DNA of 64,000 bases, from the NCBI GenBank assembly GCA_018831195.1, contig JAHJDP010000087.1, forward strand, positions 1 through 64,000, given 5' to 3'. A program made the translations under genes and the position numbers. A model generated the notes under the pieces. The model worked only from the letters and a program-made list of their open reading frames with translations, had not been told where the DNA came from and ran no database searches. Position 1 is the first letter of the stretch, and each line of letters begins with the position of its first letter. This document shows positions 2,619 to 44,312 of the stretch, piece by piece. This DNA comes from Candidatus Eisenbacteria bacterium (GTDB lineage Bacteria > Eisenbacteria > RBG-16-71-46 > CAIMUX01 > JAHJDP01).

Positions 2619-3599
2619 TCAGTGGCCCAGGGCGCGGTCCAAAGACCTCAGGACCGAGACCAGCGGCTCATCGGAACGCCCGGCCTGCTCCATGGCGCCC
2701 GCTATGAGGGCGTTGTGACTCATTCGCTGCGGAGCGTCATCCTCATCGAGTGGATAAAGATTATCGCTGGAGAGCGCCGGAACGAGCAGCAGTAAGAAGC
2801 GCGCCGGCGGGGGCGTCATATAGTAGAGATCGAGGTGGGCCTGGCTGCGATCCGCGGCCAGCGTCCAGAAGATGATCGGTAACGGGAGCGCGGATCCCAG
2901 AATCACTCGTGACGATTCCAGCCAGAACGTCAGCGCCGGCAGAACATTCTCGGCCTCGGAGGGCATCGGAAAGCGGAAACCAAGGGCCGGTGTGCGGTCA
3001 GGCCGTGTTTGGAAGCGCGGGGCGATATCTAAGAGATTACGGCTGACCCGGCGGACAATCTTGATACCGCCCCCAAAACCCAGAGATTGTGCAAGTTTTC
3101 CGACAGTCCAGCCATCCAGCGGATCCCAATCATTGCCCCGCCCCATTTGATCCATGGGGGGAATGGTCCCGCCCAGATCATTGAGGACCCGGTGCAAATC
3201 ATTTATATCAGACGGATCCCCATCCCGGATCGCCGACGCCGCTTTAACAAACTCCCCGAGGTGCCGAGGGATCGCTGCGGCGTTGAGGGTTGCCGCCGAG
3301 CCGCCGGACCGAAAGAAGGTCGCAAAAGGAAAAGCCCGCCCGCTTTGATCCCTGGAGGGGAAAAGCGCCCCCGCCAGATAGGAACTCGATCCATTGGAGC
3401 GATAAATGAATCCATGGGGAGGCATCTTCTGAAAATGTTCAAGCCAGTCATCGTTCAGGCGCGTCCGGGCAAGGCTTATCGCCTCATCCAGCCAGCGGAC
3501 AAACCCGGCGGCGGCTGGATGATCAGCCTGAGACGAAATGAAATCGGCCGCGACGGGAAGCTTCCCGTAGCAGCCGATTTCATAACCCTTTTCGTTCAT
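2619..3599 (-). CDS. tagF: Type VI secretion system-associated protein TagF
   Basis: About 326 residues. The N-terminus GCYGKLPVAADFIS, followed by a conserved FVRWLDEAI stretch, is the typical opening of TagF, the cytoplasmic protein that in Pseudomonas post-translationally represses H1-T6SS and is often fused or adjacent to the phosphatase PppA. No PppA domain is present here. It is the last gene of the minus-strand T6SS operon, 56 nt after tssM. An in-frame ATG exists at 3623, but the ATG at 3599 has a strong AGGAGG-type site lying between the two, so 3599 is chosen. The C-terminal half is less conserved. Family assignment is firm; the regulatory role is inferred from the family. Confidence 0.85.
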   Translation of the reverse strand: MNEKGYEIGCYGKLPVAADFISSQADHPAAAGFVRWLDEAISLARTRLNDDWLEHFQKMPPHGFIYRSNGSSSYLAGALFPSRDQSGRAFPFATFFRSGGSAATLNAAAIPRHLGEFVKAASAIRDGDPSDINDLHRVLNDLGGTIPPMDQMGRGNDWDPLDGWTVGKLAQSLGFGGGIKIVRRVSRNLLDIAPRFQTRPDRTPALGFRFPMPSEAENVLPALTFWLESSRVILGSALPLPIIFWTLAADRSQAHLDLYYMTPPPARFLLLLVPALSSDNLYPLDEDDAPQRMSHNALIAGAMEQAGRSDEPLVSVLRSLDRALGH

Positions 3600-3655
3600 G
3601 CTTCCCGCTCCGCCTCCTCGCATGAATCACAGAGGATCAATAAAAGTTCAACGCT

Positions 3656-6600
3656 TTAATTCGCCGTAATGTCCCGAGGGAATTGAATCCTCAAGAAATT
3701 CTTCTTCAAAGGATGCCGCGAAGGCAGCCCCCGAACTTCATATGTGACCGTGACATCCCACTTGTCGGCCGGGAAGCGCCAGATCAGCGATACCTCGCCT
3801 TCCGAGCCGCCGACAACGATCTCCTCCGTCCGATCCATGAGCCGGAAGAATCCCCAGGCGCCGTCATATTCCATGGCGGCAAGCGACGCTGTGGTTCCCG
3901 CATCAAGTCGCAGAACCGCGCCCGCCTCCGGGTTGTTTCCCGGCCAGCGAACCGGGCTCCAATTGCGCGCGCCCATATTGTAAATAAACGCTTCGCCCCC
4001 GACATCAAGCCGCATGCTCCTCACGGTGATCCCGGATGCGGCATCGCGCTCCGGCGGACGGGTGCGAATTGAAAAATCAAATCCGGCCGTACTTCTTCCG
4101 CCGGAGAAAAGGGCATGACGGATATGATTCGCTTTTCGCAACTCGCCCAAAAAAGTATTCGTCAGCGTCACGCTTTGGTTTAACACCTGTCCGTCTTCAG
4201 AGACCAAGGAAGCTAGGTTCTCTTCATAAAAGGTCCAGAAAGTCCCGCCTGTGCCGAAGAACTTTTCAAAATCCTTTAAAGACGCATCCACATCGGATGA
4301 TTCGAGAGGATAACGTCCTGCCAATGTTTCCCGGTACTCTTGATAAACCGGATTCCATTTGACTTGCAGATCACTCTGCACGGCGCGGCGTACGGTCCGC
4401 GTGGCGGCAGCCGTTGGCAATCGAAGAATGCGGACCATCTCCGCGGCGACCTGATCTTCCGGTGCTTGTGGAATGCGGGTATCGATCCAGCTCCCGAATC
4501 CCAGATAGGCTTCCGAACGGCGGAGATCCCCGCCCTCGGCGGCGATCGCCGCATACGCCTGCGCCAGGGCGTTGACGCGTTCGAGGTACTCCAGATAGGG
4601 CGCCTTGCCGCTGTTATCCCCGCCCTTCAAAAACCGAAGGGGATTTGAGCTCGTGGGATTGCGGAAGAATTCATTTATGACACCGTACTTCTCAGCGACA
4701 TCCAAAAGGCTCGGATCGGCTTCTTTATCAAAACGGGTGTTCCTCTCCACCTCACGCAACACTTGCAGCAACGGCGAGTTTTCCTTGCCGGCGCGCTCCA
4801 AGAAGGTGCGGGTGGTTTCCACATCCGTCACACCAGCCAATTCAACACCTCGCATATATTCAAGCCAAGCCTCTGCATAACCCAGAGCATATCGTGCCAG
4901 TAAACCATTGCGAATCGATGCCGGCATATCGTTGTAGGTGTTCTCCATCACCCATCCGGTGCGCACCTCTTCCAACTGCTCCAGATATTCACGGACCGGC
5001 CCTTCCCATCCCGCCGCGGAAAAAACGCCCGGAACGACGGCGCTTCCCGTGACCCCGAGATCGATGCTCACTTTGTCCGAGACGGCAACGTCGGGAATTT
5101 TAGAAGAGGCCAATAGGGAAGGATACATTCCATCAGCGGACCAATAGCGGCGGATGACGCTCTGGGCCTCCATATCCATCGATTCATCGCGCCCCGGCAC
5201 AAAATAACTGACGAGCAGATGGGGAAAATCCGAACCATACTCAAGCTGCTTTTCAAGAAGTTGTACATATTCCTGTTGGTTCCGCTCGCTCGAGAGGCCG
5301 CCCGTCAACGGCATCCAATACTCCGACAGGGCCGGCGTGACATCCTTTACCGCCGGCCGCGAGAAACGCGTTCCGGGATCCTGGAGAATGCTCCACGTTT
5401 TGTACCACTGATAATAAGTATCGAATGAAACGCGCAGGGAGTCGGCATTGCGATGAAGCTTGTTGGCGAGCACCGGTGATGCGGGGCGCATGACACCGCC
5501 GAGCAGGACTCTTAGGTAGAGCTCCCGCGCCGCCTCAGCCGCCGGTTCACCTTGATAAGTGCCGAGAAACATCACCTTCGCCATGGTCTGCCCGCGCATA
5601 TCCATCTTCTGGAGCTTTTTGCGAAGGGCGTCCATATCCTTGAGGTGGCCCAAGGTCAGCTCCGGGGAGTGACTCTGCCCCAGCACGGCGACTTTATCGG
5701 ACAGGCGCCGGACATCCCGGATCAGTGAGCGATTGGTTGCGGAGAGGATAAACAAGGCCGCCGCCAAAACAGCCGTCACCACCGCACCGGTAGCAAAGAC
5801 TCTGACCCTCCTCGCGCGCCTACGCCGTTCGCCCGCCGCCGAAGGGCCCGCCATGTGCCGGTCGGGGAAAATAATTTTTGAAAAAACCCGGCGGATAAAA
5901 TAGGACTTCGTCTCGGTCGGCGCGACAGCCATTCCCTCATCTTTAGATGTCAATCCGAATCCGGCGAGCATCGCATTGATGACTTGATCGATCGGCCGGC
6001 CTTCCTGTGTTCCGCTGGTATAGTAGAAACCGCGAAAAATAGGACTCTCCTGATAGGGATTCACGCGGAAGAGATGTTCAATAAATATAGCGAGCCGGTC
6101 TCTCAGCGCTTGGTATTGCAGGGGGAAAAAGTGCAAGTCGGCCCGGGTTTCACTGCGGGTACCCGCCGCCTGCCGTGGAATGCGGGCATTCAACAGCTGC
6201 TGCTCGAGAAGCGCCATCTCGGCCCTGAAGATATCCTCGGCCGTTTCCGTAGCGGATCGATCGCGGGAGATCGTGGCGCCCCAAACCGAGGCCCGCTGAT
6301 CTTTGTTTATATCGCCATAGTACTCTACAAACCCGCGGATCAAATCGCATTTTGTAAAAACAAGATAGACGGGGAAAGAGATCCCCAGACGGTTTATCAA
6401 TTCATCGATGCGGGTTCGGATTTTTTTGGCATGTTCTTCGACGGCTTCGATTCCCCCCTTGACCAAATCCTCTATCGAAACGGCGACAAGCAGACCGTTG
6501 ATCGGTTTGCGGCCCCGGTGGCGCCGGAGCAGATCGAGGAACCCAAGCCATTCCTGTGAATCATCCTCCTCAACCGGGAGGACATACCGGCCGGCCGTAT

Positions 6601-37105: not shown

Positions 37106-39607
37106 TCACCTCAGGAGCAGCATTTTGCGCGTCACCCTCCGATTCTGCGCCGACAAACGGCAGAAGTAGACTCCCGATCCCGCTTGAAGGGCTGCATTAT
37201 TGCGGCCATCCCACTCCAAGATATGCGGTCCGGCCGGGAAGCTCCTGTGAGCGAGCGAGCGAACGCAGTGTCCGGCGACACTATAGATATCAATCTCGAC
37301 ATCACTTTTCGCCGCTAAAACAAAAGAGATTTTTGTGTTGGCGGCAAAAGGATTCGGTTTGTTTTGATGGAGAGCATAACCTTGATCGGGACCCAGAACG
37401 TCGCCCACACCGGTTACGGAATTCATCTTGTTGATCCGCGCGAGTGGGTCGCCGAGAAAGACATAAGACCGTGCTGTATGGCGCACATCAAGCCTGTCTG
37501 GAAACTCTTCAAGAAGCCTTTGAACCGCAACCAGAAACGATTCGGCGGCCGGCCTGTCGGGATCGGCATACAGCTCTTGAACAAAATACTTCGCGAAGAC
37601 AGCATTTGTCGGTTGCCACGATCCTGTGGTAGGTCCGACCCACGCCATAGCGCCTTTATCCCATGACGCTAAAAACTTTTCGGCTATGGGCGCCCCATAA
37701 TCCGGATCTTCGGTCCGCGCAAAATCCGCTCCGTCACAGGAGCCGGATAGAACCAGGGCCGCGTGGGTCCCATACGGGTCAAGCATGCCCATGTCCCATG
37801 GATTTGCCGCATTGGTTTGATCAAAGAAATTTGCCGGCCAGGATCGATTTGAGTAGCTGCTGAGCATGAGGAGCAGCTCCGGCCTGTAAAGATTCCAATG
37901 ATCGGCCGCGGCCTCATTTCTGGCGCCGCCGCTTGGGATATCCGACTCGTAGAGATGTTGAATCCAAAGCCCGCCGGGCAATTCGCCTTCGACCTGTTGC
38001 GCGGCATCGCGCGCACATTGTCCGTCGCCCAGGCCGTCATGATCAAGATCACCGACAAAAAAGCCGACAGATTGAGCGCCGTGCGATCCGCTATCGAAGA
38101 ATTGATTCATCTCCAGTTTATGACCAAACGCCCAGACATCTTCTACATTGTTAAATGGCAGCCGCGCCAGAACGACGTCCGGCATCTCATCATTGTCGAT
38201 GTCCTGATAGGGTTGATCCGTCATCCAATAGGGTGTGACATAGGCGGTGTTCAAACCCCGGGAGGCCGTGTCGGATACAGCGAAGGTCGGAATAATATCC
38301 TTTGCCGGCTGCCCCCTCTCCGAATAGCCGGAAGCCAGGTACCCGTTATGAATACTCAACCAGTCACCGGTCCAGTATTGCCCGCCCTGCTCGGCCAGAT
38401 CAAACCACTGCCAATCATTTGCATCACCCACCAAAAGGAAGAAGCGGGCTCCCGACGCCGCCCACGAAGCGATTTCACCCTTGAGATGGGCGCGAAAACT
38501 TCCAGGATCGGCGGGATAGTCATCAATCTCCTCGATCATAACGCTGTAGCCGTATCCACCCCAGAATTCAGCATAGGTATATTCAAGGGCCTCTCTGAAT
38601 TTCAGCGGGCAAAAGATGACAACGGTCTCATCTCGGCCCAGCTGTGGAATCGAGGATAAATAACCATTGTTTAGCCGGCTCTGTCGCAGACAATCAATTC
38701 GATCGCGCAGGAATTCTATCGTTGGGCGCGGTTCGACATTGTGTGTTACTTGATTTGTGTGTGTGGCGGCACCATGAAAAATCTCTTGGCCATTTGCCTC
38801 AACTTCAACCAGCCGGAACCACTCATGGCCGCCGCCGATTTCGACATGATGGAACCCCGCCCCCGGGCTAAGGGGCGGGGTCAACGAATTCCAGGGGCCG
38901 GCAAGGGTGTAGCTTCCATCGATTCTATAATGAGACGTGCGGTGTTCGCTCGAGACCTTCCATTGAGCGACTCCGTCGACGACGGCAAAACCGTGTACAA
39001 CAGCCGCTGGATTATCAGGGCGGTAGAATTTTATATCCGTTTGATCATATGGACAATGATTCCATCTGTGCCGGACTAATGGTCCTTTGCCCCATTTGGA
39101 GACAAGATAACCCGGAATAGCGGTTGTTATCGCTGAATGATTACCATTTGGGAAATTGGCCTTCCTTGGGCCCCCGGCCGAGAAAACAGTCACTGTTTCC
39201 GGATTGACGCCATCAACTTCAAAGTAGCTGCCATCTTCCCAATAGATGTCCTCTGCCACTATGACTTCATTATATGTCGAACAATACTCAGCTTTCCCCA
39301 TCCCAATCCAGACAGGATCGCCACCCTCAGAAGCATGCCAGGCATAACCATGGCAATTATAAGTAAGCGTGGACTCCTTCAATATTTCTGCGTCCCACCC
39401 GCTGAACGCGATAAGAAACTCGACGTCAACGTTCCATGTCTGAATGGAATCATACGGGGCCTCATCCCGAACCCAGGCGCAGGGTACCATCGAGCCATTC
39501 GGCGTATGGACATCGAGCGCAGGATAATCCTCGGCATGGGCGGGACCAAGAAAGATAAATCCACTAAGCGCGAGGAGAAGGGCCGGGTAACTCACGAACC
39601 GGATCAT
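37106..39607 (-). CDS. Exported protein: NlpC/CHAP-like Cys domain, C25-like domain lacking its His, FlgD-like C-terminus
   Basis: 833 residues with signal peptide (ends GPAHAED). Residues about 75-195 hold YNCHGYAW (Cys85), GNHSAI (His157) and SKWGKGPLVRHRW (His180), a pattern like NlpC/P60- or CHAP-type Cys hydrolases. Residues about 325-720 look like a peptidase C25 (gingipain) fold: VVIFCPLKF, FFLLVGDAND, PDVVLARLPF, ALVLSGSCDGADF (Cys624) and FLGDPLARI. Where the family normally has Gly-His-Gly this protein reads SSYSNRSW, so the usual catalytic His is replaced (apparently by Tyr585). An FlgD-like tail ends RKMLLLR. The start follows the previous gene by 11 nt. It is the last gene of a sigma-54-type operon. 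Activity and target are unknown. Confidence 0.75.
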   Translation of the reverse strand: MIRFVSYPALLLALSGFIFLGPAHAEDYPALDVHTPNGSMVPCAWVRDEAPYDSIQTWNVDVEFLIAFSGWDAEILKESTLTYNCHGYAWHASEGGDPVWIGMGKAEYCSTYNEVIVAEDIYWEDGSYFEVDGVNPETVTVFSAGGPRKANFPNGNHSAITTAIPGYLVSKWGKGPLVRHRWNHCPYDQTDIKFYRPDNPAAVVHGFAVVDGVAQWKVSSEHRTSHYRIDGSYTLAGPWNSLTPPLSPGAGFHHVEIGGGHEWFRLVEVEANGQEIFHGAATHTNQVTHNVEPRPTIEFLRDRIDCLRQSRLNNGYLSSIPQLGRDETVVIFCPLKFREALEYTYAEFWGGYGYSVMIEEIDDYPADPGSFRAHLKGEIASWAASGARFFLLVGDANDWQWFDLAEQGGQYWTGDWLSIHNGYLASGYSERGQPAKDIIPTFAVSDTASRGLNTAYVTPYWMTDQPYQDIDNDEMPDVVLARLPFNNVEDVWAFGHKLEMNQFFDSGSHGAQSVGFFVGDLDHDGLGDGQCARDAAQQVEGELPGGLWIQHLYESDIPSGGARNEAAADHWNLYRPELLLMLSSYSNRSWPANFFDQTNAANPWDMGMLDPYGTHAALVLSGSCDGADFARTEDPDYGAPIAEKFLASWDKGAMAWVGPTTGSWQPTNAVFAKYFVQELYADPDRPAAESFLVAVQRLLEEFPDRLDVRHTARSYVFLGDPLARINKMNSVTGVGDVLGPDQGYALHQNKPNPFAANTKISFVLAAKSDVEIDIYSVAGHCVRSLAHRSFPAGPHILEWDGRNNAALQAGSGVYFCRLSAQNRRVTRKMLLLR

Positions 39608-39618
39608 TTTTATCGCCC

Positions 39619-40401
39619 TTAATCATTACCCCTGATAAATTTTTCAATAAACCCACTCAGGGTCGACATTCCTCTTTTTGTGCTCTGCGTCATGGCTGTG
39701 GGATAATCCAGAAATTCAAGTATATCTGTACTTGTATTGACGTCGTGAAAGAAAGGCGAGTCTTCAACACTCTGAAAAAGGCGGCCCATCAGCAGGTGAA
39801 TAGTGACATCTCCTTCTCGTTGCCGGAGCCTTGTCGTGTATCTGTCGCCGCACAGGGCCAATAACCTATGCTTTTCTTCGGTCGAAAGACCGGATAAAAT
39901 TTCCGGGATACTCAACATGGACTCCAACAAAGCAAAATCCCATTCGAAATACATTTTCTTGATCCGGGGCCAATCGGGATCGAGTAGAGCTGGGTCCAAT
40001 GCTTGATATACTTTTAGTATAGCGGATCCGGCATCAGGTCTTTGTAGCAGTTCCCAACGAAATCCTAGCGGCTTGTGTTCTGGAGATGGGATGGAAGCGG
40101 GAAGGGCACCATCGCTGCTAAAATTCCAGAAATGGCGATCAGGATATTTCAGACAGGTCCAGGCCAAACCTAAGGTAGACATTGTGCTCAAAACCGAATC
40201 GGGAACTTGAATCGCTTTCCTTCTGTCCTGCTCCTCCATCTCATTCCATTCAGGAGTGCCGGGAACAACAGGGAAGTCATACACGTCTATATTGTCGTAG
40301 GATATTAAATGAAACATATCATAATCGGTGTCACTTGCAGATGCCCTGCTATTTGGAACAAATGATACAACCAAGAACAGGAAAGCGATTATGACCTTCA
40401 T
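39619..40401 (-). CDS. Unknown exported protein
   Basis: About 260 residues from ATG 40401, preceded by GGGGAGGAAA. The signal peptide is MKVIIAFLFLVVSFVPNSRASASD. The mature part is helical, with a conserved-looking block IPEILSGLSTEEKHRLLALCGDRYTTRLRQREGD and another near SVEDSPFFHDVNTSTDILEFLDYP. No family is recognised. It lies between a lipoprotein gene (34 nt upstream) and the large Cys-hydrolase gene (11 nt downstream), so it probably acts with them, perhaps as an inhibitor or chaperone; that is a guess from position. Confidence 0.6.
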   Translation of the reverse strand: MKVIIAFLFLVVSFVPNSRASASDTDYDMFHLISYDNIDVYDFPVVPGTPEWNEMEEQDRRKAIQVPDSVLSTMSTLGLAWTCLKYPDRHFWNFSSDGALPASIPSPEHKPLGFRWELLQRPDAGSAILKVYQALDPALLDPDWPRIKKMYFEWDFALLESMLSIPEILSGLSTEEKHRLLALCGDRYTTRLRQREGDVTIHLLMGRLFQSVEDSPFFHDVNTSTDILEFLDYPTAMTQSTKRGMSTLSGFIEKFIRGND

Positions 40402-40435: not shown

Positions 40436-40927
40436 TCACCCTTCATCTTTGGGTTTTGGAATGCAAATGGGGTCATTGGGATGTACCTGGCACCATTTGA
40501 TCAACGACCAAGACAATAGCGCATTATCCCCTTGCGGGAAGAGATAATTCTCGATGTCTGATACAATATTGGGATCTGTGATTCTGGGCATCTCGTAGCC
40601 ATAGAACAGCTTTCCGGCGGTCTTGGCAACAAGGGTTTCAATCATGTCCGGATCTCTCACTTCAACGGCAAGGGCCGGAATGGTTCCGGTGCGATAAGCA
40701 TAAATGATCAGGATCTCATCAACCGCGCCTGCTTTTGATTCGAAAACCATCCAGGGCCATTCGGTTCCATCCAGGGAGCGTGTTGAAGGCATCCCGGTCG
40801 GGTCATGCCCAGTCGAAGATTTGGACGACACACTGTCTTCACTGCATCCCATCATTCCTAATCCCATCGTTCCCATGATGATGCCGCCTCCGATAAGGAG
40901 GCACAGAATGGTAATCCTTGCGCCCAT
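40436..40927 (-). CDS. Unknown lipoprotein, first gene of the sigma-54-type operon
   Basis: 163 residues from ATG 40927, with SD GGGAGGG about 6 nt upstream. The signal peptide ends at a Cys in GLGMMGCSEDS, a slightly unusual lipobox (Met-Gly before Cys). A Ser/Thr/Pro linker of about 30 residues leads to a small domain (WPWMVFESKAGAVDEILIIYAYR...LSWSLIKWCQVHPNDPICIPKP) with two late Cys. Function unknown. It is directly downstream of a sigma-54 promoter match at 40982-40996. Confidence 0.6.
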   Translation of the reverse strand: MGARITILCLLIGGGIIMGTMGLGMMGCSEDSVSSKSSTGHDPTGMPSTRSLDGTEWPWMVFESKAGAVDEILIIYAYRTGTIPALAVEVRDPDMIETLVAKTAGKLFYGYEMPRITDPNIVSDIENYLFPQGDNALLSWSLIKWCQVHPNDPICIPKPKDEG

Positions 40928-40981
40928 GACTTTCCCTCCCAATCGCGATCTCATGAGTGAGTCCAATCAACTTTCTAGTGG

Positions 40982-40996
40982 GCAATAATCATGCCG
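40982..40996 (-). promoter_or_regulatory. Sigma-54 (-24/-12) promoter
   Basis: On the minus strand the sequence reads CGGCATGATTATTGC. It aligns with the consensus TGGCACG-N4-TTGC with correct GG-to-GC spacing (12 nt from first G to G), matching the invariant GG and GC and the TTGC block. Transcription would begin near 40970, giving a leader of about 40 nt before ATG 40927. The neighbouring gene encodes a sigma-54 activator, which strongly supports the call. Confidence 0.75.
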
Positions 40997-41174
40997 GGGG
41001 AGAGAAGAGGCGGGAAGCGCACCGGGTTTTGGGCGGAATATGATTAGGTCGCCCAACGCGCTGATATCATATGAATTGCGAGGTCAGGGCCGTTGTTCTC
41101 TGTAGAGGGGAGCCGCGTTCTCATCTTGAACAAAACAGGCGACCGTGTCTGAAAAGTGAGATTTCGTAACCCAG

Positions 41175-41200
41175 CGGACACTCCGGACACAATCGGACAC
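41175..41200 (+). promoter_or_regulatory. Heptamer array I: three direct CGGACAC copies
   Basis: CGGACAC occurs at 41175-41181, 41184-41190 and 41194-41200, about one helical turn apart, so all three face the same side of the DNA. The cluster is about 205-230 bp upstream of the predicted sigma-54 transcription start, a usual distance for an enhancer site. Binding by the adjacent activator is inferred. Confidence 0.7.
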
Positions 41201-41374
41201 TTTTTATGATTACAACGTAGACACGCGGTTCCCATTCGGATTCACAAAATGAGGCTGCCGGCGGAGAGCAGATAACTCTTCAATAGAAAACAGGTTATAA
41301 TGCCGCCCCGATTCGCTGCCAGCGCCAAGAGCCTTGTTGGGATTCGCGCTCTTGCGTCTATCTGGGATGAAAAT

Positions 41375-41409
41375 GTGTCCGGGGTGTCCGCCCGGACACT
41401 TTCGGACAC
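41375..41409. promoter_or_regulatory. Heptamer array II: palindromic GTGTCCG x2 / CGGACAC x2
   Basis: GTGTCCG at 41375-41381 and 41384-41390 faces CGGACAC at 41393-41399 and 41403-41409. The centre TGTCCG-CC-CGGACA is a perfect dyad. Spacing is 9-10 bp between all units, implying a cooperative, symmetric protein assembly. It lies about 405-440 bp upstream of the sigma-54 start and about 100 bp from the 3' end of the activator gene. Confidence 0.75.
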
Positions 41410-41513
41410 TGTGATTGAACCGAATGCCGATGCCCACCGGAAAAAAATGAAGATTCTTCGCAGCTTTTTGTGAAATCTCTGGAATTGAAAAGGTGCGGGC
41501 GCAAAAGGTGAGC

Positions 41514-43883
41514 TTAACGAAGGATTCGATAGACCATCTGGCGTGATATCCCCAGCATTTTGGCCGCCCGGCTCCGGTTTCCTCCGGCCGCGGCAAGTGC
41601 GGACACAACCCTGTCTCTGCTCGGACGCTCAATGGCAACTGGTGAGGGCTTCAGCGCTGAATCGAGAAGCATCTCCCGGATGACCGCCGGATCGAACGAT
41701 GCGCCATTCCCTATGCCATTGAATCGGAGCCTGAGCGCGCGCACGAAATGATCAAGCTCGCGGATATTTCCAGGCCATGAATGCTCCCGGAAAACAAGCA
41801 GACCCGCCTCCTCGACCAATCCCTTAGGAAGGGCGCTGCCGGCGCCATGGTGATTCCACAGGTGGCGGATGAGGAGGGCAAGGTCTTCCAACCGGTTCCG
41901 CAGGGGAGGGAGATCAATCCGGCCTTGAGCCAGCCGGTAATAGAGATCTTTCCGGAAGAGGCCCATCTTTAGTTTCTGCGGGAGATCTTTTTGTGTGGCG
42001 GATACGATACCCAGCTGAATATTGTGAATGGCTGTTGAGCCCAGCGCCTTCACCTCGCCGCGATCAAGAAAACGCAGCAAGGCGACTTGAGCCCGGGGCG
42101 ACAACTCCCCCACTTCATCCAAAAAGAGCGTTCCCCCTTCGGCCTCCCGCACCAAACCGCGCCGGTTGCGCGTTGCCCCCGTGAAGGCGCCCGCGTCAGC
42201 GCCGAAGAGCTCGCTTTGTATAAGGGCGTCGGGACAGGCGCCGCAATTGAAGGGAACAAAGCGCCCTCTCCGGCCGGCAAGCTTGTGAATCCCCCGCGCC
42301 ACGAGCTCTTTTCCCGTCCCCGTCTCACCCGTGAGAAGGATAAAAGCTCCGTCTTCCGCCAGTCGACGCGCTTTCTCCAAGACACGCTTCATCGGAAGAG
42401 ATCCGGTGATAAGGCCGATCTCATTCCAGATGGGATTTAAAGCCATAGAAGTTTGTGCATCCGTCAGTGCGCCCTTCGGCGCAGCCTTTACCGCACCCTT
42501 GGGTTTCGGCCGGGAAAAATCCAAACGCTCGAAATGACCAGAGGGTCCTTCTGACGCGCGGGTCTTCATGTTTGCCTGCAATAGCTGATGGCGCCAGCCG
42601 GATACGAGATCGGCTTTCTGGCCCAGGTTCATTTTTCGCAAAAGATCTTGTGCTCGAAGAGCGGTTTGTTCAGCTTTATCATTCATGCCTTGGGATTCGA
42701 GAGCCAAGCTGAGAAGACCCCACCCCTGGGCTTCTTCCCAATCCATCCCGCATTGGGATGCGAGATCGATGGCGTTTCGCGCCGCCTTCTCCGCCCGCGG
42801 CCACTTTGACTCAGCGCAGGCCAGCAAGGAGAATCTTAAATAGCACTCGACAACCAGATCTCCCGCCGGCGAAAGACAGTCGGCCAGACGGCGGCAGAGG
42901 TTCAGGGCTCGGTGCGCCCTACCAAAATGTCCACTCGTCGCCATAACCTCACCGAGGAACTCCAGAGATAGACATTCTTCACGCGGCATCTCCATCCGGC
43001 GGGCCATGCGCCAGCAGCTTAAGAGCAGGCGGCGGGCCTCCGGCCAGTCACCACAGCGGCCCGCGAGCATGCCCTGTCCCAAAGCCGATCGCAAGATCAA
43101 GGTTGCATGACCTATCTGTCGCGCCTGTTTATGAGCCTGCGCGAACGTCGCGTGACTTTGCTCGAGGAGACCCATCCGATTAAGGAGCCAAGCGCGATTA
43201 AGCAGGACGCGCACAACGCCGGTCAGATCACCGCCATCGCGACGGAGTTGTTCTGATTTTCCATAAAACCGGAGCGATTCCTCAAGCCGTCCTCGGATGC
43301 GGAGCACATTGGCCATCTGGCCGCAGGTCTTGCCCCAGAGAACACGATCGCCATAACGCTCGGCCAGTTCGAGGGCCTCGGCCGCCTTGGCCTCGGCCTC
43401 CTCAAGATTGCCGAGTCTCATGAGGGGTGTGACGGTCTGGATGAGAATCAAAACAGCGGTTTGCGGGTTGGCTTTCGCGAGAACATCCGGGCCCATCCGT
43501 CGACAAAGGTCCAGGGATGAAGGGTAATCGCCACTCTCGGATAGAATATAAGCCAGGACGGCCGTGCCGCGGACTTGTATTTCCGCCGAAACCGAGCCGG
43601 CGCTTTGAAGCAGGTCGCGGAGGACAGGGGTCCATACTCTGAGCTCCTTGGTTTTACGGAGCGCTTGGCAGCTCTCTAAGTAGCATGAAACAAGAGCTAA
43701 ACGATCATCCCTTTCGGGGATCCCTTCAATCGAAGTTGAAACGATAGGTTGGAGAAGCTCGTAGGCATGGGTCGGTGAAGCAGCATCCAGGTATAGCCGG
43801 GCTCGACGAAGACAGCTAGCCAATGCCTCGGCTGGAAGATGAGATGAAGTCGAAAGATGTTCCCCGCACCCCTCCAGACTCAT
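41514..43883 (-). CDS. TPR-containing sigma-54-dependent transcriptional activator
   Basis: 789 residues. The N-terminal 400 or so residues are TPR/MalT-like helical repeats with no receiver, GAF or PAS domain. The AAA+ domain carries Walker A GETGTGKE (about 519-526), the sigma-54 contact loop GAFTGA (about 565-570), Walker B GGTLFLDE and the FRKDLYYRL region. A Fis-type HTH ends the protein (AAGGNRSRAAKMLGISRQMVYRIL). The ATG at 43883 is chosen because GAGGAG lies at 43891-43896; an upstream TTG is not needed. The TPR region would sense a protein or peptide signal. The operators and sigma-54 promoter just downstream suggest it drives the operon at 40927-37106. Confidence 0.93.
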   Translation of the reverse strand: MSLEGCGEHLSTSSHLPAEALASCLRRARLYLDAASPTHAYELLQPIVSTSIEGIPERDDRLALVSCYLESCQALRKTKELRVWTPVLRDLLQSAGSVSAEIQVRGTAVLAYILSESGDYPSSLDLCRRMGPDVLAKANPQTAVLILIQTVTPLMRLGNLEEAEAKAAEALELAERYGDRVLWGKTCGQMANVLRIRGRLEESLRFYGKSEQLRRDGGDLTGVVRVLLNRAWLLNRMGLLEQSHATFAQAHKQARQIGHATLILRSALGQGMLAGRCGDWPEARRLLLSCWRMARRMEMPREECLSLEFLGEVMATSGHFGRAHRALNLCRRLADCLSPAGDLVVECYLRFSLLACAESKWPRAEKAARNAIDLASQCGMDWEEAQGWGLLSLALESQGMNDKAEQTALRAQDLLRKMNLGQKADLVSGWRHQLLQANMKTRASEGPSGHFERLDFSRPKPKGAVKAAPKGALTDAQTSMALNPIWNEIGLITGSLPMKRVLEKARRLAEDGAFILLTGETGTGKELVARGIHKLAGRRGRFVPFNCGACPDALIQSELFGADAGAFTGATRNRRGLVREAEGGTLFLDEVGELSPRAQVALLRFLDRGEVKALGSTAIHNIQLGIVSATQKDLPQKLKMGLFRKDLYYRLAQGRIDLPPLRNRLEDLALLIRHLWNHHGAGSALPKGLVEEAGLLVFREHSWPGNIRELDHFVRALRLRFNGIGNGASFDPAVIREMLLDSALKPSPVAIERPSRDRVVSALAAAGGNRSRAAKMLGISRQMVYRILR

Positions 43884-43955: not shown

Positions 43956-44312
43956 TCAGCGGAGCAACCAGTTTAACAGCCACAACTGAACCCGGGTGGA
44001 AAACGGCATTGGGGTTCGCTCGGCTTGAAAAGGACGCACGGTGGAATGCGCACGTTCAGCGCCGACGTTTTTTTCCGCCGTACTTTTACAATCCAGCACA
44101 TGCCCAAGGTCGCTGTTTTTGGCCGGCAAAGGAGTGAATTCAGGCTCATCTCCATCCCCATCCGAATTGGAATAGGGATCCCGTGTCGGTGTTCCCGAAT
44201 AAGCGGAAGCGATAGAGGGAAGGGTTGCCAGGAAGCCGATAAGAAGCAAAGCCAGGACTCCATAGGACACGATCAGCATTCGGAAAGCACGGAAAACTTT
44301 AGCATGGTTCAT
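43956..44312 (-). CDS. Small exported or membrane-anchored protein upstream of the activator
   Basis: 118 residues from ATG 44312 (SD GAGGAG at 44321-44326). One hydrophobic segment, MLIVSYGVLALLLIGFLATLPSIASAYS, serves as signal peptide or anchor. The rest is short and polar with DSDGDGDEPE, two features of a flexible, possibly calcium-binding, segment. Its stop is 72 nt before the activator start, so they may be co-transcribed. It could supply the signal the TPR activator senses, but that is speculation. Confidence 0.5.
   Translation of the reverse strand: MNHAKVFRAFRMLIVSYGVLALLLIGFLATLPSIASAYSGTPTRDPYSNSDGDGDEPEFTPLPAKNSDLGHVLDCKSTAEKNVGAERAHSTVRPFQAERTPMPFSTRVQLWLLNWLLR

What the first reader, a model, noticed from the sequence alone, without database searches (positions are those of the whole stretch)
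40928..43883. Sigma-54 circuit: TPR activator, seven-heptamer enhancer array and a matched promoter
The activator gene has an intact GAFTGA loop but TPRs instead of the usual sensor domains. Next to it lie CGGACAC x3 (41175-41200) and a symmetric GTGTCCG x2/CGGACAC x2 block (41375-41409), all at helical-turn spacing, then a -24/-12 promoter with correct GG/GC spacing. The whole switch and its target operon are contiguous.
Basis: partly seen in the sequence, partly recalled or inferred. Interest (0 to 1): 0.8.

Follow-up and report, generated by a model that had tools for sequence, protein, structure and literature searches.

The report
TPR-sensor sigma-54 enhancer circuit, Eisenbacteria
A bacterium from a poorly studied phylum carries a self-contained gene switch (an activator with a peptide-receptor-like sensor, two arrays of its probable docking sites, and a matching sigma-54 promoter before genes for secreted proteins); the genome holds a diverged second copy, and relatives pair such activators with a small exported protein that could be the signal.

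Summary
All seven heptamers, the TPR/AAA+/Fis-HTH activator with GAFTGA, and a -24/-12 element with GG-N10-GC are where stated. Single CGGACAC heptamers are ordinary (560 in 5.24 Mb; reversed control 475). Clusters are not: GTGTCCG-N(1-4)-GTGTCC occurs only here and in one paralogous cassette on contig C30 (activator 69% identical, two arrays, a 13/14 sigma-54 promoter, a related lipoprotein). Array-array distance is 174 vs 173 bp and array-promoter distance 177 vs 179 bp, although the spacer sequence has mostly diverged. In a second Eisenbacteria genus a related activator is linked to TGTCTCC arrays, one of them 115 bp upstream of a sigma-54-like promoter before a secreted C25 peptidase homologous to the window one. 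The sigma-54 circuit is thus well supported by comparison; binding and transcription are inferred. New: class-wide, the gene just upstream of TPR activators encodes a small exported protein (32/42, vs 14/185 background genes and 0/10 non-TPR activators). Three relatives carry repeated ALGEEFPE ending at the C-terminus. The modelled TPR domain is closest by TM-score to Rap pheromone receptors. A peptide-sensing sigma-54 switch is plausible but unproven.

The parts
43956..44312 (-). small exported protein, 118 aa: signal peptide, DGDGDE motif, hydrophobic C-terminus ...RVQLWLLNWLLR; its stop lies 72 bp upstream of the activator start codon
   Evidence: no Pfam or NCBIfam match
41514..43883 (-). 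sigma-54 activator, 789 aa: N-terminal TPR superhelix, AAA+ with GAFTGA, C-terminal Fis-type HTH
42174..42191 (-). GAFTGA sigma-54 contact loop
41520..41579 (-). Fis-type HTH, recognition helix GISRQMVYR
41375..41409 (.). distal array: GTGTCCG x2 then CGGACAC x2 (symmetric block)
41175..41200 (.). proximal array: CGGACAC x3 (GTGTCCG x3 in the direction of the operon)
40981..40997 (-). -24/-12 sigma-54 promoter CCGGCATGATTATTGCC, 177 bp downstream of the proximal array
40436..40927 (-). lipoprotein, 163 aa, first gene of the target operon; homologue only in the paralogous cassette (41%)
39619..40401 (-). exported protein of unknown family, second gene of the target operon
37106..39607 (-). secreted peptidase family C25 protein with C-terminal sorting tail, third gene of the target operon
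   Evidence: homologue behind an array in a second genus

Best explanation
The region is a compact sigma-54 regulatory cassette. The TPR activator is probably made from a sigma-70-type promoter (inferred from a consensus-like site at 44419-44390) together with a small exported protein. When its TPR sensor is in the active state, the activator binds the two heptamer arrays through its Fis-type HTH, assembles on them as an AAA+ ring and, by looping of roughly 180-400 bp of DNA, remodels RpoN-polymerase at the -24/-12 promoter. This transcribes the lipoprotein, exported protein and C25 peptidase operon. The sensor input is probably a peptide or protein ligand of the TPR groove, and the co-encoded exported protein is the leading candidate. 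Shown by sequence and comparison: the parts, their geometry, their duplication and their partial conservation in another genus. Inferred: binding, looping, sigma-54 dependence and the ligand.
For: AAA+, GAFTGA and HTH_8 are intact and one RpoN is present. GTGTCCG-N(1-4)-GTGTCC occurs only in the two cassettes in 5.24 Mb, with 0 in the reversed control. Paralogous cassette C30: activator 69% identical, arrays at 1731-1766 and 1940-1955, promoter TTGGCACGGAGATTGTA 13/14, lipoprotein 41% identical, E=4e-43. Inter-array spacers are 174 vs 173 bp and array-to-promoter 177 vs 179 bp, although ungapped spacer identity is only 36% and 31%. Second genus (G005:C33, Ca. Eisenbacteria Loclat_bin-10216): activator with the related recognition helix GVSRQHGYR; a TGTCTCC array 100 bp behind its gene and a second array of six heptamers (10-11 bp steps, one of 21) lying 115 bp upstream of ATGGCACGGAAGTTGAG; downstream a secreted C25 protein homologous to the window one, E=4e-11. 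G010 has a mixed-orientation TGTCTCC array near its TPR activator. Triple TGTCYCS arrays: 9 hits at 6 places vs 1 for the reversed control in 47 genomes, 3 of the 6 places linked to TPR activators.
Against: No transcript, footprint or sigma-54 dependence data. The window promoter is only 11/14, and the C30 and G005 elements deviate at -12 (GT, GA instead of GC). In G005:C33 the array behind the activator, and the G010 array, have no good -24/-12 element next to them. Several relatives with nearly the same recognition helix (L066, L111) lack a TGTC array of this type within 1.5 kb. TGTCCCG arrays also occur in a phage-like region of the same genome.
Confidence: 0.75

Rival explanations
1. The arrays are operators of a different DNA-binding protein (for example a repressor); the sigma-54 promoter is controlled by some other activator or is fortuitous.
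For: No binding data; relatives with a similar HTH lack the arrays; TGTCCCG arrays also occur away from TPR activators.
Against: In this genome the GTGTCCG arrays exist only next to the two paralogous activators; array to promoter distance is kept at 177/179 bp; related motif and C25 operon are linked to a related activator in a second genus.
Confidence: 0.15
2. The symmetric distal block is a transcription terminator of the activator gene, and the repeats are a by-product of hairpin or tandem-repeat dynamics.
For: 41399-41375 (- strand) scores as a terminator-like hairpin; it lies about 100 bp behind the activator stop codon; tandem repeats are common around some relatives.
Against: The tail is not a run of T (ATTTTCATCC); the proximal array consists only of direct repeats and cannot form the hairpin; Tandem Repeats Finder sees no tandem array at 41175-41410; the same heptamer is used with changed spacing in C30.
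Confidence: 0.08
3. Sensor side: the small exported protein is a translational secretion monitor (SecM/VemP-like leader) that controls synthesis of the activator from the same mRNA, and is not a diffusible ligand.
For: Upstream position in the operon with short gaps, a signal sequence and a conserved hydrophobic-basic C-terminus are also features of secretion-monitor leaders (own knowledge).
Against: Repeated ALGEEFPE units ending exactly at the C-terminus in three relatives have no evident role in arrest; no common arrest motif was seen; the TPR receptor fold suggests ligand binding.
Confidence: 0.25

Closest known systems
Sigma-54 activators (bacterial enhancer-binding proteins: NtrC, NifA, ZraR, FleQ, PspF)
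   Same: AAA+ domain with GAFTGA, Fis-type HTH, upstream sites acting on a -24/-12 promoter
   Different: About 450-residue TPR sensor instead of receiver, GAF, PAS or V4R; arrays of direct heptamers at 9-10 bp (plus one symmetric block) instead of the usual pair of dyads (own knowledge)
RRNPPA peptide-pheromone receptors (Rap, NprR, PlcR, AimR) with adjacent propeptide genes (PMC9765709)
   Same: TPR receptor with best TM-score to Rap-CSF 4gyo (0.78 by target) and NprR 5dbk 0.72; small exported protein encoded immediately next to the receptor; multi-copy repeats ending at the C-terminus in some members
   Different: Sensor fused to a sigma-54 AAA+ activator with C-terminal Fis-type HTH; Eisenbacteria/Krumholzibacteria instead of Firmicutes; partner longer than typical; no import or peptide binding shown
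MalT-type TPR regulators
   Same: TPR_MalT-like region in the sensor (below the Pfam cut-off)
   Different: No STAND NTPase and no LuxR HTH; sigma-54 activator instead

Membership tests
bacterial sigma-54 activator (enhancer-binding protein) | Sigma54_activat AAA+ domain with Walker A/B | tested here: met
   E=1.6e-55; GETGTGK and LFLDE
bacterial sigma-54 activator (enhancer-binding protein) | GAFTGA loop | tested here: met
   residues 565-570, window 42174-42191
bacterial sigma-54 activator (enhancer-binding protein) | DNA-binding HTH | tested here: met
   HTH_8 E=1.1e-7
bacterial sigma-54 activator (enhancer-binding protein) | RpoN in the genome | tested here: met
   one Sigma54_DBD, E=1.2e-56
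bacterial sigma-54 activator (enhancer-binding protein) | -24/-12 target promoter with upstream activator sites | tested here: met
   sequence match and paralogue footprint; function not tested
bacterial sigma-54 activator (enhancer-binding protein) | ATP-dependent activation of RpoN-polymerase from the arrays | not testable with these tools
   needs in vitro transcription or a deletion
RRNPPA peptide-pheromone systems | TPR peptide-receptor fold | tested here: met
   AlphaFold2 model pLDDT 84.8; best TM to Rap 4gyo 0.78; TPR similarity is generic, so weak
RRNPPA peptide-pheromone systems | exported propeptide gene adjacent to the receptor gene | tested here: met
   32/42 vs 14/185, 0/10 non-TPR activators; export judged by a crude signal-peptide rule; that it is a propeptide is not shown
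RRNPPA peptide-pheromone systems | mature peptide at the C-terminus of the propeptide | tested here: inconclusive
   ALGEEFPE repeats end at the C-terminus in three relatives; the window protein has no repeats, only the shared hydrophobic-basic C-terminus
RRNPPA peptide-pheromone systems | domain layout: N-terminal HTH, or no DNA-binding domain, with C-terminal TPRs | tested here: not met
   TPRs are N-terminal; HTH is C-terminal, Fis type, behind AAA+
RRNPPA peptide-pheromone systems | re-import of the peptide (oligopeptide permease) and binding to the receptor | not tested
   no search for the permease and no binding data

The most novel reading that the evidence does not exclude
The cassette is one member of a class-wide family of peptide-sensing sigma-54 switches in Eisenbacteria/Krumholzibacteria: a TPR pheromone receptor fused to a sigma-54 activator reads a peptide cut from the co-encoded small exported protein and turns on secreted surface proteins such as C25 peptidases through dedicated heptamer arrays. 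It would be an RRNPP-like cell-cell signalling architecture outside the Firmicutes, wired to sigma-54.
Probability: 0.33. Interest if true: 0.9.

Novelty: new variant of a known kind. Interest (0 to 1): 0.66.

Why it matters
Sigma-54 activators are known with many sensor domains. In the open-access library searched here I found no paper on a TPR sensor combined with a co-encoded small exported protein. The pairing recurs across a whole class of uncultured bacteria, so it would give a first handle on how these organisms sense and what they switch on, and it can be tested with a single reporter cassette. The paralogous pair with kept distances but diverged spacer sequence is a natural experiment on enhancer-promoter geometry.

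Tried and rejected
Counting single heptamers as evidence: rejected, they are near background. Homology between upstream small proteins by BLAST: none detectable in the pair tried; the shared features emerge only from position, signal peptide, GDxD motif and C-terminus. The first control set of about 1040-aa TPR activators failed as a control because 19 of 19 also had the partner; replaced by unrelated genes and non-TPR activators. General motif discovery around other TPR activators gave mostly shuffle-level clusters. A TGTCCCG array on own contig C77 looked like another target but lies in a phage-like region. Lipoprotein relatives in other genomes: none in 47 genomes. N-terminal half of the C30 activator: not in the assembly. 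Literature: no paper in the open library combines sigma-54 with TPR sensors or RRNPP in this sense (searches failed).

Full report
WHAT WAS CLAIMED AND WHAT IS THERE. The heptamers are exactly at the stated places: CGGACAC at 41175, 41184 and 41194, and GTGTCCG, GTGTCCG, CGGACAC, CGGACAC at 41375, 41384, 41393 and 41403. The - strand gene 41514-43883 encodes a 789-residue protein with TPRs, a sigma-54 AAA+ domain, an AAA lid and a Fis-type HTH; Walker A, GAFTGA and Walker B are intact. On the - strand, CCGGCATGATTATTGCC at 40997-40981 has GG-N10-GC and 11 of 14 consensus positions. It lies 70 bp before the start codon of a lipoprotein gene preceded by GGGAGGG.

IS IT MORE THAN CHANCE. The single heptamer is ordinary: 560 copies in 5.24 Mb, against 475 for the reversed pattern. 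At that density the whole genome should hold about 0.001 triples within 26 bp and 2.5e-6 quadruples in 35 bp. The pattern GTGTCCG-N(1-4)-GTGTCC occurs only at this locus and on contig C30, with none for the reversed control. Promoter-like sites with GG and at least 11/14 occur at 1.25e-4 per strand-base, so about 0.03 are expected between the proximal array and the start codon.

THE PARALOGOUS CASSETTE. C30 carries an activator 69% identical over residues 235-788 (the contig starts inside the gene and the N-terminal part is not in the assembly). It is followed by a distal array GTGTCCG-GAAA-GTGTCCG-GT-TGTCCG-GAG-CGGACAC, a proximal array GTGTCCG-GA-GTGTCCA, a better sigma-54 promoter TTGGCACGGAGATTGTA (13/14), and a lipoprotein 41% identical to the one in the window. 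The spacer between the arrays is 174 bp here and 173 bp there; array to promoter is 177 and 179 bp. Ungapped identity in those spacers is only 36% and 31%. The inter-array spacer still shows residual similarity (1 of 2000 shuffles as high), so some of the equal length may be inheritance and not selection. The second genes of the two operons are unrelated. The lipoprotein family is found in no other of 47 genomes of the class.

A SECOND GENUS. The organism belongs to Candidatus Eisenbacteria: the nearest named relatives are from that group. In relative G005 (Loclat_bin-10216) a TPR activator with recognition helix GVSRQHGYR (window: GISRQMVYR) is followed 100 bp behind its gene by TGTCTCC repeats spaced 11, 21 and 11 bp. 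A pattern scan of the class found an extended copy of that array 10 kb upstream. It has six heptamers at 11, 21, 11, 11 and 10 bp, and 115 bp later ATGGCACGGAAGTTGAG (11/14, GA instead of GC at -12), then a 41-codon ORF and a 500-residue secreted C25 protein with a sorting tail. That protein is homologous to the C25 protein of the window operon (E=4e-11). No other C25 gene was found by tblastn in the 174 other loci held (1.14 Mb). So activator type, array type, promoter type and one target gene family recur together in another genus. Relative G010 has a mixed-orientation TGTCTCC array near its activator, without a good promoter. Other relatives with similar recognition helices lack such arrays nearby, so the rule is not general.

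MECHANISM. Best reading: the activator binds both arrays, and the ring formed there contacts RpoN-polymerase about 180 and 390 bp away by looping, driving the lipoprotein / exported protein / C25 operon. Parts and geometry are shown by sequence; binding, looping and sigma-54 dependence are inferred. Arrays of direct half-sites at just under one turn, plus one symmetric block, are unusual next to the pairs of dyads of NtrC or NifA (own knowledge).

THE SENSOR SIDE. The gene directly upstream of the activator (44312-43956) encodes a 118-residue exported protein without any family match. The same arrangement recurs class-wide. Using one fixed rule (60-140 aa, crude signal peptide, ribosome-binding site, stop within 200 bp upstream), 32 of 42 TPR activators have it, against 14 of 185 other genes in the same loci, of which at least six are themselves TPR activators without an exact GAFTGA, and 0 of 10 non-TPR activators. 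The two other complete TPR activators of this genome that were read also have it, and four further MAGs among the more distant named relatives too. The proteins share a signal peptide, a GD(P/G/N)D motif near residue 42-65 (G in 40, D in 33, P in 29 and D in 33 of 44 aligned) and a hydrophobic-basic C-terminus often ending LR or LRF. In three genomes the partner carries 2, 3 or 5 copies of ALGEEFPE (one copy GLGEEFPE), the last one exactly at the C-terminus. [quoted passage not shown] The AlphaFold2 model of the TPR region (residues 1-475, pLDDT 84.8, 22 helices) has its best E-values to LGN but its best TM-scores, among the 50 matches listed, to Rap-CSF 4gyo (0.78 by target length, 4.6 A), Phi3T Rap and NprR. 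This makes a peptide input plausible, not shown. A SecM-like leader role for the small gene is the main rival.

MEMBERSHIP. It is a sigma-54 activator by every feature testable here. It works like an RRNPPA receptor on the sensor side at most; it fails that family's domain layout (C-terminal Fis HTH behind AAA+), and import and binding were not tested, so it is not filed there.

LIMITS. Draft assembly; no expression data; export calls rest on a hydropathy rule; arrays with both activator and promoter are known from only three places in two genera.

Noticed in passing
L049:3182-3580; L111 and L115, just upstream of the activator genes: Small exported proteins with 5, 2 and 3 copies of ALGEEFPE-type repeats, the last copy at the very C-terminus, encoded just upstream of TPR sigma-54 activators.
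   Followed up: partly
L172:5737-5782 (own contig C77:113736-113781): Five TGTCCCG-type heptamers at 10-bp spacing in an intergenic stretch of what looks like a prophage (packaging and portal-like genes); binder unknown.
   Followed up: partly
L173:7470-7595: 41-codon ORF (MVQAQLSCSSPLW...GCFVCGKFE) directly behind the array and sigma-54-like promoter in G005, ahead of the C25 gene; two close cysteines at the C-terminus.
   Followed up: no
L111:164-435 and 3541-3849: Several different short tandem repeat arrays (15-43 bp units) on both sides of a TPR activator gene on a 3.9-kb contig.
   Followed up: no
window 37106-39607: The C25 protein has a SGSCDG motif fitting the catalytic cysteine, but no obvious His-Gly was seen by eye; it may not be an active peptidase.
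   Followed up: no
L062:6910-10029 (C77) and L063:7310-10411 (C12): Two further TPR sigma-54 activators (1039 and 1033 aa) of the same genome, each with a small exported GDxD-type protein just upstream.
   Followed up: partly
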